Shown: positions 3,001-63,400 of the stretch, piece by piece
Position numbering within the stretch: position 1 is the stretch's first letter
Layout of the letters: each line of letters opens with the position of its first letter
Assembly (NCBI GenBank): GCA_018857735.1
Contig: JABMCL010002073.1
Coordinates: 2,119,501 to 2,183,500, forward strand
Length of the DNA: 64,000 nucleotides
Origin: Alviniconcha marisindica
Lineage: Eukaryota > Mollusca > Gastropoda > Provannidae
Reading direction: 5' to 3'
The notes under the pieces: model-generated
Seen by the model: the letters and a program-made list of their open reading frames with translations, nothing else
Database searches by the model: none
What the model was told of the DNA's origin: nothing
Position numbers and translations under genes: made by a program

Positions 3001-6000
3001 AGAACGCTGTGTCACATTCCTCCATTGAAATTCTGTACCTGTGGGGCCTGTTGAAGTACATACCCCCCCCCAACCCCCAACCTGCATTAATAACTTTTAA
3101 AAAAACTATAACCATCTGTGGCCAAGTAGATGAAAATGTTAGATTAAACATAGTAATAACACATTAAAATGAAGAGTTTAAAGGAAGTTATTCTGCATTA
3201 TATGTGTTTCTGGTTTACTTTTCGTTTAAGACTTTCATTGTTATATAGGATTTGTAAAAATGAAACTCTTAGAAATTAGCAGGTTTGCTATCAGGATATT
3301 TTTTCCCCCATTTCATTGAAGGTTAGAACTGGTCATTTTCAGCTTTTCCTCAAAGCTCTTACTGTTCTTTTATGCCTTTTCTTTTTTTAACTTACATTTT
3401 TTTCTTTTTTTGCAGCTCACTGCCCAAGTTTTTTCATTGAACATGAGCTCACCTTTGTGCTGTGCGATTCTGTGCAGAATGGCCCTCTATGAGTATGCAT
3501 GAAGATCCAATTCACCTTTGTAATGTGCGTTTCTGTGCAGACTGGCCCTCTATGTATGATGATCCAGTTCCAGCTCACTTTTATAATGTGTGTTTCTGTG
3601 CAGAATAGCCCTCTGTATGAAGATCCCGTTCCAGCTCACCTTTGTATTGTGCTTATCTGTGCAGAATGGCCCTCTGTATGAAGATCCCATTCCAGCTCAC
3701 CTTTGTATTGTGCTTATCAGTGCAGAATGGCCCTCTGTATAAAGATCCTGTTCCAGCTCACCTTTGTATTGTGCTTATCTGTGCAGAATGGCCCTCTGAG
3801 CATGTATGAAGATCCGGTTCCTGCCAGCCAACCAGCTACTCCAACTGGACAGATCAGCTCTGGTCAGCCAGCCACAGCAGTGACCAGTGTCCATGTGGAT
3901 GTCACCCTCTCTTCCCAGCTTGCAGGATCTCAGAACAGCCCTGCCAAAGCCTTCCTGCTCCTCCAGGAAATGAACTATCTCACACAAACCCATCCTCAAA
4001 TGCAGGATCAGCGCCCCTCAGCGTCAAGTTCATCACAGTGTCTGGGTCTCAGGTGCTTCATTCATCCGGCCCACTTCCCCCAGGCAACTTGAAGCTAATT
4101 CCAGTGCCGCCAGCCCCGGCCACCGCAGCAAAATCTCCACTGGTGTCTGATAATGCCAGCAAGCATGTGGTCCTGCAGGTCCAAGGTGCTCAGTTAGACT
4201 CCAGCAGTAAACCTGCCGATGGTTTGGTCTTGGTCAAAGAAGCAGGAGCTTCATCTGTAGTGAAGTCAGAAGCAAAAATGCCACATGTCAAGCATCTTGA
4301 TGCACCAGAGGATACAGATATGGCTGCATCGAAAAGAGAGCCTGGCTTCAAATATGTTGGGAAAATGGAGCTGAGGTCGAGACTTCGAGGTTCGGCTGTG
4401 GCACAGGCAGTTCAGGAAGCTGAGGATCAAACAGATGCAAGGGTAGGTGCAGGCAGAGCAGTGTCTCGTACTGAAGACCCTGGTGAACATTGTACTCCAG
4501 CTACCAGCACTTCTCAGATTTCCTATGCCAAGCATGTCTTGCCCATTTGTACTGCTGCTGACGTGCAGCAGAAAGGAATAGCGGTACCTGTGAACCCTCG
4601 GTCTGAGGTACCTGTACAGTCTGAGCCCAGTAAGAGTGGGCCTGATACTTCAGATGTCAAAGTGCCAGAGCCAGGCAGTGATGCCATTCAGGGCAGTGAG
4701 AACAATCTACCCAGCTCCAAACTGGACAGCAATACCACAGATCAGTTAATGTCTTCAACAAGTGACACTGATGATGCTGAAGACAAGTTGGAGTCTGTTG
4801 TGGGTGGTGGCTTCACAAAGCACACAGAAGACAGGGATAGCAGGAACAGTACCGCAGAAATCGCCTCGGAGACCAGCATTGCCTCCAGAGTCCAGAGCCG
4901 CAGGCATTCCAAAGGATCAGGGGCAGAACCAAGTGTTGTGGTGGAGACTGTTCACACCATCCCTACACACTCCACCCTTACTGGTATGCACAGTCAGCAG
5001 AGTAGTCCACGAGTATCCAGAAGCATCAACTCCAGCCCAGTTGCCGTTGACAACCAGGAGCAGCCTTCCCACACAGACAGCAAAACCAACAACGGAGAAG
5101 GGGAGACTTCTTCAAGAACACTTCACTCAAGCAAGGCAAGAGATCCTGGGGAAGAGAAGGGCGTTGAGGCTATGATATTGTCGGACAATGATAAAAGGGT
5201 GTCTGACACACAGCGCACAGAATCACCGTCAACAGAAGCAGACACTAATGCCAAGGACGTTAACCTGACCAGTACTCAGACTTTGCAGGATAGCGAATCG
5301 GCTGTCACCCTGCTTTCCTTGCTGAAGCGTGGTCCCAATGTGAACCCTGCTTGCCCACCAAAACCCTCTGAACTGATCCACACTGGAACGGCAATGAAGC
5401 AGGAGTCAGCCGAAGATTCTCCTAACAGATCTCCGAGCTCATCATCAGAGACAGATTCAGCTGCAAAAGAGACGTTTACAGATCTGATGTCAGAAGACTT
5501 AACCTCTGAAATGGAATCGACATCATCTGGGAAAACTCGAGCAGGGGGTGGTGGCATCTGCTCCACTCTGCTGGCCGTCATTGAGCAGTTACGAGAAAGG
5601 TTAGATCTGGTTAACTTTGTTCATGTGAGATTTGTTTTAGTGTTATTTTTGTATTTGATTTTAATAAATGCTGTTTCCAACTATGCCATTGCCAAAGCAT
5701 CAGATTACCATGGATTTAAAAATCTATTAAATTTGAAAATGACCTGCTCTTCATTCATAATCATATTAATAAGAACTGATACTAAGTGAAGACAGAAATA
5801 TTTTTTCATCCTCACCATTTAAAAGTTCTTTGATCCTCTTTATTACACTTACTATCTGATGTGATATGGTGATTTAAGGCCCTCTTCATGTTAATTTGCA
5901 TCATTACATCATGGCTTAACATGTGAATGTGACATAATTATACCACAGTAATCTAAAAAGATATTGTTTTGTTTTTTGGCCGATTAAGAAACTTTGGAAT

Positions 6001-60400: not shown

Positions 60401-63400
60401 TAAATAAGCAGTCATAAAATGTTCGGGGGGGGGGGCTGAACTCTGTTTCCTTTAACAGTGGAACCCTGATAAAAGAGCACCATGATAAGAGGCCACTCCT
60501 CTTTTTAAACCACTTTTGGAAACCTCTTCCTTCATAAATGACCCCCGTGACCAAAGAACACCCCTCTTTTCAAACTACTTTAGAAACCTTTCCCTACATA
60601 AATGACCCCCTGACCAAAGACCGCCCCTCTTTTCAAATCTTGCTCTTCACAAATGACCCCCCTGACCAAGGACCACCACTCTTTTCAAACTACTTTAGAA
60701 ACCTTTCCCTACATAAATGACCCCCTGACCAAAGACTGCCCCTCTTTTCAAACTACTTTAGAAACCTTTCGCTACATAAATGACCCCCTGACCAAAGACG
60801 ACCCCTCTTTTCAAACTACTTTAGAAACCTTTCCCTACATAAATGACCCCCTGACCAAAGACCGCCCCTCTTTTCAAACTACTTTAGAGACCTTTCCCTA
60901 CATAAATGACCCCCTGACCAAAGACCACCTCTCTTTGAAGACCATTTTAGCTTTGATTTGAAAGGTGATCTTTACAGTGGGGTTCCACTGGTAGTTCCTT
61001 TTTCAATAAACAAGGAGGGGTGGTCATGCTGAACAGATGTGTGAACAATCCTAACTCCTGCTGACACATCATTTCAGGCTGTGACTGAGTTACCCAACTA
61101 CATTGTGGAGTGTGTGCTGACCATCGTGTTCAGTCTCATCTCACACCCTCAGCTGTCCATCCGGGAGACGGTCACCAAGATTATGTCCACCTATATGCAA
61201 CATGTGGAATCCCAGGTAACAAGACTTCTTAGTGCTGGTGGAATTAGGAGGGTCAGTGGCACAGAGTGAAAGCACTTGTTCTCAAAAGCCAAGCTGCACA
61301 GAATCAAGCATAGTCACTACATGGATAGGTGGTCGTTACCTGCTAGGCTTTGCATCTGTCCTGAGATTTTTCCACAGACAGATTCTGTGCAGACACTACA
61401 AAAGTTATTCAGATGAGAGTATAAACTGAGGTCCCCTGTACGTATACACCTGCAAAAGATCACTTATGCACGTTAAAGATCTGTTGTCTGTGTCAAAGTT
61501 TGATGGTTAGGAAAACACCTGAATAACCCAGCATGTAGTAAAAGTGTCAGAGTCTTCAAAATGTTGAAGCTGGACACTACACGGAAAAAGAATTTATTTT
61601 GAGAGGGGGGGGGGGGAAGAAGAAAAAAAGTGAAATGATACAATTGCTCACAAAGATCTCTGGAAACAGAGACTATTTATGAAGTTACTTAGTACATATG
61701 GCCATCTCAGAATTAGACGGAAAAAAAGAACTACAACTAAACACACAAACAATAACACAAACACTGAGCTACAGGACAAAAGGTTATTTAAGAGCATCTG
61801 AATGTGTCATTAATTCTGACCACCTTATGACTTATACATTGAGTTTTGTGCATGCCTACTTTCAGGATATGTTGGATCTGATGCATCAGACATTAACCTT
61901 GTTGACACCACCTACTGCAAACACAGAGGCATCAGAGGTAACACTACAAGTACTCTGTCTGTCTGTCTGTCTGTCAATGTTAACATTGTCAGCAACACCT
62001 GCTGTACACAGAGAAGCCTCAGAGGCGAGATACATTCAAAATACCCCTCTGTTTCTCTGTGTGTGACTCTGTACTCTTTTTCTGTGTCTGTCTGCCTGTT
62101 GATGTTAACGTTGTCAACACCACTTACTGCACACACAGAGGCCTCAGAGGCTAGGCAGCATGCAAAATATCCCTCTGTTTCTCTGTACGTGACTCTCTGT
62201 CCAGATGCCTCTGTGACATTAATGTTTTCAACAACACCTGCTTCTGCATCAGAGGCAACACTAAAGGGAATCTTTCTCTGTGTCTGTCTGCCTGTCTGTG
62301 TGTTGATGTTAACCTTGATTACACCACCTACCGCAAACACAGAGGCATCAGAGGTAGAACACACAATACTCTGTGTCTGTCTGCCTGTCTGTCTGAATGT
62401 TAGCATTGTCGACACCACCTACTTTACACAGAAAGGCATCAGAGGTAGCACGCTGTCTGTGTGTCTATCTGTCCACCTGTGGTATTAACAGTGTGGACAC
62501 CATGTACTGCATACTGATAGATATCAGAGGTTACATTCAAAGTTTGCTTTCTTTGTGTACATGCATGCCTTCCTGTCTCTACATCTTTCTGTCTGTTGGT
62601 CTGTCCATCTACCTTGCTAGTCTTTTGGTCCTTATGTCTGACTGACCAACTGTCTGATCTGACTGACCAACTATCTGTCTGTCTGCTCTCTCTCTCTCTC
62701 TCTCTCTCTCTCTCTCTCTCTCTCTCTCTCTCTCTCTCTCTCTCTCTCTCTCTCTCTCTCTCTCTCATACAGTGGCATGCAAACATAAACAGTTACCATC
62801 TTGTTGCAGACTTTCCACTGTGTGGAGGCATATGCTGCTGAGGGGCTGCTCAACATTTGTACATCTATTTTTAAGGTAAACTGATAGAAATCAACAAATA
62901 GTGGAAATTCATAGCACTTGACAAGCATCATAATAATTATGTGATAGGATTTTTTTTTTTTTTAAAGTCCAGATAGATCCTAATTTGCCCTGCTTGCTTC
63001 AGACTATGATGCAAAACAAACAGCTGAACATGTGTCAGGAAGGAAAAATGAAACAGGAATTGGTAAAAGTGGAGAGGAAGGGAAGGGGAGAGAGACAAAA
63101 CACACACACACACACACACACACACACACACACACACACACACACACACACACACACACTGAAACAAAATAAAATGTCATGGAAAATACACCAAGTAAAA
63201 CTCTTTGGAAAATACAAGTTGTAACTAGTTCTGAGTCAGAAACAGTCATTTGAGCTTTTTACTGGCCTGGTTTGCATTCGTGCTCCCCCCTGCCGCACCC
63301 AACCCACCCCCAAAAAACTGCAAAAGAACAGCAGCCAACAACAACAGAAACAGGAACAAGAGCAACAGTGCCAAACAAAGAAATAAATGTAAAGACAACA

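What the first reader, a model, noticed from the sequence alone, without database searches (positions are those of the whole stretch)
3415..62545. Minisatellites built from exon borders in three unrelated genes of one window
In ZNF507 (3415-3830) and CDK10 (40741-41115) a tandem array consists of the end of an intron, its AG and the first exon bases, with the true exon joined to the last copy. In the ARM/HEAT-like gene (61893-62545) the mirror image occurs: the end of an exon plus its donor, repeated downstream. Tandem repeats in introns are common. Three arrays each anchored exactly on a splice site, in 64 kb, is not what random placement would give. It may reflect a duplication process that starts at exon borders, or selection tolerating only copies that leave the true border intact. 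I know of no described class of such arrays, but I could not search.
Basis: partly seen in the sequence, partly recalled or inferred. Interest (0 to 1): 0.8.

Follow-up and report, generated by a model that had tools for sequence, protein, structure and literature searches.

The report
Splice-border minisatellites ("mirages") in a snail
In three snail genes a short stretch across the edge of an exon has been copied several times into the neighbouring intron; this is real, but it is a known kind of repeat first described in lancelets, and it is no more frequent at exon edges than chance would give in this repeat-rich genome.

Summary
The three arrays are real. Related proteins place each true junction at the exon-side end of its array. 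The excess over chance is not: random placement of the window's 19 minisatellites against 63 splice borders gives 3.0 arrays with a border; 3 are seen, 2 by TRF limits alone. In a wider sample of the same 818-Mb genome, 11 of 197 borders (5.6%) have a nearby copy, against 11.5% of intron or flanking positions and 1.3% of exon-interior positions. This fits ordinary tandem duplication filtered by selection: copies lie on the intron side, and 19 of 20 decoy sites read would bring an early stop. The class is described: 'mirages' of amphioxus Adh3, globin, troponin C and PGBD5 genes. What looks new is the phylum (a caenogastropod mollusc) and the frequency, about one border in twenty. A modest border preference is not excluded: if arrays may take at most one repeat unit, or 40 bp, of exon, 4 are seen against 1.2-2.2 expected (P 0.03-0.16). 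No RNA could be examined.

The parts
3446..3798 (+). ZNF507 acceptor array, 61 bp x 5.7; copies of intron end + AG + first exon bases (first base after AG: 3478, 3541, 3604, 3665, 3726, true 3787)
   Evidence: TRF; copies read
3787..5599 (+). ZNF507 true exon, joined to the last copy (NGPLSMYED...)
   Evidence: P(I/M)FQ|NGPLS contiguous in all six relatives looked at (P0121-P0124, P0127, P0131; three named gastropods, three unlabelled)
40732..41115 (+). CDK10 acceptor array, 50 bp x 7.7, 97% matches; seven decoy acceptors (40748 to 41048), true one 41098
   Evidence: TRF; single match in the genome search
41098..41173 (+). CDK10 true exon (CDPEFMPSFPQHRLKRRNPEPEPEQ)
   Evidence: tblastn with P0001, P0002, P0004; reading frame
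61866..61937 (+). HEAT-like gene true exon (DMLDLMHQTLTLLTPPTANTEASE), donor GTAACA
   Evidence: tblastn with Littorina, Babylonia and Nucella relatives P0204-P0206
61893..62545 (+). HEAT-like gene donor array: degenerate copies of exon end + donor downstream of the true donor
   Evidence: TRF 61960-62196 and 62276-62448; copies ending at 62149, 62254, 62353, 62444, 62529

Best explanation
These are 'mirages': minisatellites formed by ordinary local tandem duplication (slippage or unequal exchange) that happened to span an exon-intron border. Copies of acceptor + exon start grow upstream, and copies of exon end + donor grow downstream, because only those layouts leave the outermost true border and the protein unchanged; layouts that lengthen the exon are removed by selection. 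The true border stays fixed, copies near it tend to be homogenised with it, and far copies decay. Shown here: anatomy, true junctions by homology, side of the copies, rates against introns and exons, and decay with distance in two of the three arrays. Inferred: the mutational mechanism, and that splicing normally ignores the decoys.
For: Expected against observed arrays with a border: 3.0 / 3; 4.0 / 4 after completing the HEAT gene with fetched flanks. Border copies 11/197 (5.6%), intron or flanking positions 1190/10375 (11.5%), exon interior 16/1215 (1.3%) (pooling the counts). Similar border copies at unrelated genes: CCT chaperonin exon L025 (both ends), kinesin exons L062, L067, L076, L044. 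Early stops at 7 of 7 CDK10 decoys, 9 of 10 ZNF507 upstream AG sites tried, 3 of 3 HEAT copies with GT. CDK10: identity to the true unit is 1.00 in copies 3-6 and 0.74 in the outermost; ZNF507: the two copies next to the exon are nearly identical to it, the three farther ones are not. The same structures are published in amphioxus, where they are said not to disturb splicing.
Against: If arrays are allowed at most one repeat unit of exon, 4 are seen against 2.2 expected (P 0.16); at most 40 bp of exon, 1.6 (P 0.07); restricted to arrays of 90 bp or more (n=10, one low-complexity CT array dropped), 1.8 (P 0.08) and 1.2 (P 0.03). A mild preference for borders is therefore not excluded. The HEAT copies do not decay evenly with distance (0.90, 0.97, 0.83, 0.73 over the 30 exon bases of four copies).
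Confidence: 0.85

Rival explanations
1. Border-directed duplication: a process tied to transcription or splicing (for example R-loops or paused replication at exon borders) starts tandem duplication preferentially at splice borders.
For: Conditional simulation leaves a mild excess: 4 seen against 1.2-2.2 expected, P 0.03-0.16. Border duplications are common in absolute terms, about 1 border in 20.
Against: Borders have local copies half as often as intron or flanking positions (11/197 against 11.5%; nominal binomial P 0.004). Unconditional placement predicts the count seen.
Confidence: 0.08
2. The decoys are functional: an array of competing sites lowers or tunes productive splicing (poison splice choice), for example removing the basic C-terminal tail of CDK10.
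For: CDK10 decoys 3-6 equal the true unit at all 50 compared positions, and decoys 1, 2 and 7 differ only on the intron side; every one leads to an early stop. ZNF507 has one in-frame alternative at 3757 (+30 nt) that scores above the true site (8.1 against 6.6 bits).
Against: No RNA of this species could be read. Amphioxus mirages are reported not to disturb splicing. Far ZNF507 copies and the HEAT copies have diverged, which argues against upkeep.
Confidence: 0.05
3. Assembly artefact: collapsed or expanded haplotypes or read errors at short repeats.
For: The ZNF507 long exon holds an apparent frameshift near 3990-4010, so local sequence errors may exist; the amphioxus BflGb6 mirage was misassembled in the draft genome.
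Against: Copies differ from one another in an orderly way, similar arrays occur in several unrelated genes, and the CDK10 array gave one match in the assembly.
Confidence: 0.02

Closest known systems
'Mirages' of amphioxus (Adh3, globins BflGb6/BflGb9, troponin C, PGBD5)
   Same: Minisatellite-like tandem duplications across intron-exon borders, of either border; many units carry AG/GT; cluster boundaries escape homogenisation; unit lengths overlap (10-72 and 150-160 bp reported; TRF periods 50-125 bp here).
   Different: Other phylum (caenogastropod mollusc). Regular splicing (RT-PCR) and haplotype or somatic length change were reported there and not tested here. No frequency was given in the passages read; here about 1 border in 20.
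Internal tandem repeats at exon-intron boundaries of human segmental-duplication genes (PMC2812944, passages read)
   Same: Tandem repeats located at exon-intron boundaries.
   Different: There half of the repeats lie within coding exons, and boundary repeats may form novel introns, with transcript evidence; here the exon is unchanged and the junction residues are shared with relatives.
Intron gain by tandem duplication of an AGGT proto-splice site (title and abstract start of PMC4974935; model discussed in PMC3087553)
   Same: Tandem duplication carrying splice signals.
   Different: No sign of a new intron here: relatives join the same protein residues and the exon coding is kept.

Membership tests
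mirage (amphioxus class) | Tandem repeat units span an exon-intron border | tested here: met
   junctions by homology
mirage (amphioxus class) | Either border (5' or 3') can be duplicated | tested here: met
   acceptors in ZNF507 and CDK10, donor in the HEAT gene; CCT exon L025 at both ends
mirage (amphioxus class) | Many, not all, units keep AG/GT signals | tested here: met
   AG in all six ZNF507 copies (picked at AG, but their 61-63 bp spacing covers the array) and in 8 of 8 CDK10 copies found by exon letters; GT in 3 of 5 downstream HEAT copies
mirage (amphioxus class) | Concerted evolution inside the cluster, edge copies exempt | tested here: met
   CDK10 copies 3-6 identical to the true unit, outermost 0.74; ZNF507 true copy keeps AGCATG, absent from the three copies before it. 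Not clear in the HEAT array
mirage (amphioxus class) | Correct mRNA despite decoy sites | not testable with these tools
   no RNA of this species; only contiguous residues in related proteins
mirage (amphioxus class) | Length instability between haplotypes or somatically | not testable with these tools
   one assembly, no reads
intron gain by tandem duplication | A new intron arises inside former exon | tested here: inconclusive
   relatives join the same residues at the three junctions and the exon coding is kept, which gives no support; the relatives' own intron positions were not read

The most novel reading that the evidence does not exclude
In caenogastropods splice borders are a preferred seed of tandem duplication, so that about 5% of all borders sit in active mirages; these move borders, add exon-end copies and feed new introns at high rate. 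The six-fold repeat of an exon end in the Nucella gene model of the same HEAT gene would be one captured step.
Probability: 0.1. Interest if true: 0.7.

Novelty: new member of a known kind. Interest (0 to 1): 0.4.

Why it matters
In the papers seen, mirages are discussed for lancelets. Finding them in a mollusc, in chaperonin, kinesin, CDK10, ZNF507 and HEAT-like genes at about one border in twenty, suggests they are a general product of genomes rich in minisatellites. It gives a large natural set for testing how the spliceosome picks one of several near-identical neighbouring sites, and whether such arrays seed new introns or exon ends.

Tried and rejected
Excess over chance: tested in several ways and not found; the stricter conditional null leaves a mild, mostly non-significant excess. 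Site strength as the reason the true site wins: rejected for CDK10, where decoys 2-6 have the same bases from -20 to +3 as the true site and the true acceptor is weak (1.07 bits, rank 30 of 32); in ZNF507 the highest-scoring acceptor of the intron (3416, 15.5 bits) is not the one relatives point to. The 60493-60936 array as a border copy: rejected; the resemblance PSFQTTLETFPYI / TSFQAVTELPNYI crosses the acceptor of the next exon (61078), so its first part is intron.

Limits of the sample: borders of the CCT and kinesin exons were set by script (best splice score near the profile match), not by annotation. Of 7 such borders with a copy, one (L063) reads as an in-frame repeat with doubtful border and one (L076) had its border set wrongly; by eye it is still an acceptor copy. 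28 of 30 CCT loci were used (L010 and L012, long matches without evident introns, dropped before counting). 40 of 126 kinesin matches were fetched, taken by rank from the listing before their DNA was seen, skipping matches with stops inside, two of open frame 706 (C2386) in the first batch and several more in the second; so 'first 20' in my note is not exact. The threshold was noted, after fetching and before scoring. 109 of 136 possible borders passed the score and low-complexity filter; several exons come from one gene. The non-exon positions of these loci may include other exons or intergenic DNA. Neighbouring positions are not independent, so the P is nominal. One search scored minus-strand loci in the wrong orientation; redone.

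Full report
What is there. The window appears to come from a caenogastropod snail, not identified to species: the CDK10 composite is 81% identical to Pomacea CDK10 and 88% to an unlabelled protein, and the HEAT-like gene is closest to Littorina, Babylonia and Nucella proteins. It lies at G000:C2298:2119501-2183500 in an assembly of 817.6 Mb. Taking the TRF rows with period above 2 and merging overlaps leaves 19 minisatellites (list).

True junctions. ZNF507: the six relatives looked at read P(I/M)FQ|NGPLS(M/I/V)Y without a break, which puts the exon start at 3787, the last copy of the array. CDK10: P0001, P0002 and P0004 read QP(Y/H)P|CDPEFMPSFP(Q/H)HRLKR, exon start 41098. HEAT-like gene: P0204 and P0205 read LMHQTLTLL.PP....E|S..C(V/I)EAYAAEGLLNIC, donor after 61937. 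The 63 borders used for the three plus-strand genes were placed by homology and by hand, and all have AG or GT in place.

Chance. Placement inside the three gene spans gives 3.8 (P 0.85), or 2.8 (P 0.56) if whole exons may not be swallowed. If an array may take no more than one unit of exon, 1.6 are expected (P 0.20), with at most 40 bp 1.2 (P 0.11). In a test that does not use TRF, 3 of 62 borders have a 36-base copy of at least 75% identity within 800 bp, against 194 of 2647 window positions and 0 of 232 exon-interior positions. So 'not what random placement would give' does not hold in its plain form.

Wider look. I fetched 70 kb of flanks and completed the HEAT gene. It has two more cases outside the window: a donor array of 87 bp x 6.0 at window coordinate 75627, each unit carrying CAG|GTGATC (0.72 in the 36-base test, so not counted at 0.75), and degenerate copies of an acceptor at 67931 (0.75). 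With 89 borders and 18 arrays in the three genes, 4 arrays hold a border against 4.0 expected (P 0.59); with the one-unit limit 2.2 (P 0.16), with 40 bp 1.6 (P 0.07); for the 10 arrays of 90 bp or more (one low-complexity CT array dropped) 3.2 (P 0.41), 1.8 (P 0.08) and 1.2 (P 0.03). I then took exons of CCT chaperonins (PF00118, 28 of 30 loci used) and kinesins (PF00225, 40 of 126 matches) from the same genome. At 0.75, 2 of 44 CCT borders, and 1 of 33 and 4 of 32 kinesin borders, have a copy, and 4 of 88 borders of the three genes. Together this is 11 of 197 (5.6%), against 1190 of 10375 intron or flanking positions (11.5%) and 16 of 1215 exon-interior positions (1.3%). At that rate 63 borders would give 3.5; the window has 3.

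Examples read by eye. A CCT exon with both ends duplicated (L025: CTTTCAG|CAAGATCCTGCAGATGG twice; exon end with CTAG|GT or CAAG|GT three times), kinesin exon ends repeated downstream (L062 ACAAG|GTAAGAGGTCTG three times and L067 GAAAAG|GTCAGTT six times in the stretch printed, true site included), and an acceptor (L076 ACCAG|CATGGGGAGAGGAAG twice). L044 is a single copy 785 bases upstream.

How it works. A duplication across an acceptor gives intron-exon-intron-exon. Splicing to the last copy leaves the protein unchanged; splicing to an earlier one adds sequence. All seven upstream CDK10 acceptors read CDPEFN(LN)* with the stop 155-461 nt before the last junction, a position at which nonsense-mediated decay is expected (general knowledge). 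Nine of ten ZNF507 upstream AG sites tried stop early; the tenth, 30 nt upstream at 3757, is in frame. The three HEAT copies with GT (62353, 62444, 62529) read into stops. CDK10 decoys 3-6 are identical to the true unit over 50 bases while the outermost is 74%; the two ZNF507 copies next to the exon are nearly identical to it and the three farther ones are not, and the three copies before the true one lack an AGCATG present in the exon. The HEAT copies do not decay evenly.

What it is called. [quoted passage not shown] 2002 (that paper not held). It says that both borders can be duplicated, that units vary in length, that many carry AG/GT, that the data suggest regular splicing is not disturbed, and that cluster boundaries escape homogenisation. 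PMC3902484 (passage read) adds troponin C and PGBD5. In the searches made the listings showed me no such report for a mollusc and no frequency. The library is open-access only, long listings were cut (15 of 937, 15 of 35), and listed papers such as the Conus intron study PMC3862624 were not opened, so this is weak evidence of absence.

Bounds. No RNA and no reads could be examined; sample borders were set by script; P values are nominal because neighbouring positions are not independent.

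Noticed in passing
41938-43214: CDK10 last intron: 55-bp array, 21.5 copies by TRF, most units with a strong acceptor (12.0 bits), four bases GGTG, then a strong donor GTAAGTG (9.4 bits): a row of ratchet-like 'four-base exons'. 16 such pairs at >=10 and >=8 bits; outside the array one on the plus strand and four (at two places) on the minus strand of the window. It is not a copy of an exon border that I know; its genome search did not complete.
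   Followed up: partly
P0206 (Nucella lapillus gene model), aligned to window 57290-57393: The Nucella model of the same HEAT-like gene repeats an exon end, SRRRTSLDDRTFKHVK, six times in frame at the place where the intron after 57393 lies here; P0204, P0205 and P0207 have it once. Possibly a mirage read as coding.
   Followed up: partly
3990-4010: ZNF507 long exon appears to change frame: both flanking frames match relatives. Sequence error or real frameshift not decided.
   Followed up: no
3416: The highest-scoring acceptor-like site of the ZNF507 intron (15.5 bits) lies just upstream of the array but is not the junction seen in relatives; it would lead to an early stop.
   Followed up: partly
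60493-60936: 63-bp array x 7.2 in an intron of the HEAT gene, open in one frame (21-residue repeat); relatives' proteins gave no match there.
   Followed up: partly
L005/L006 (window coordinates 75625-76148): Further donor array in the HEAT gene outside the window, 87 bp x 6.0, 98% matches, each unit starting CAG|GTGATC.
   Followed up: yes
L063 around 800-960: Kinesin exon region with a 54-base repeat that reads in frame (SQSCLFSDVDCVVDQVFE); may be a coding minisatellite.
   Followed up: no
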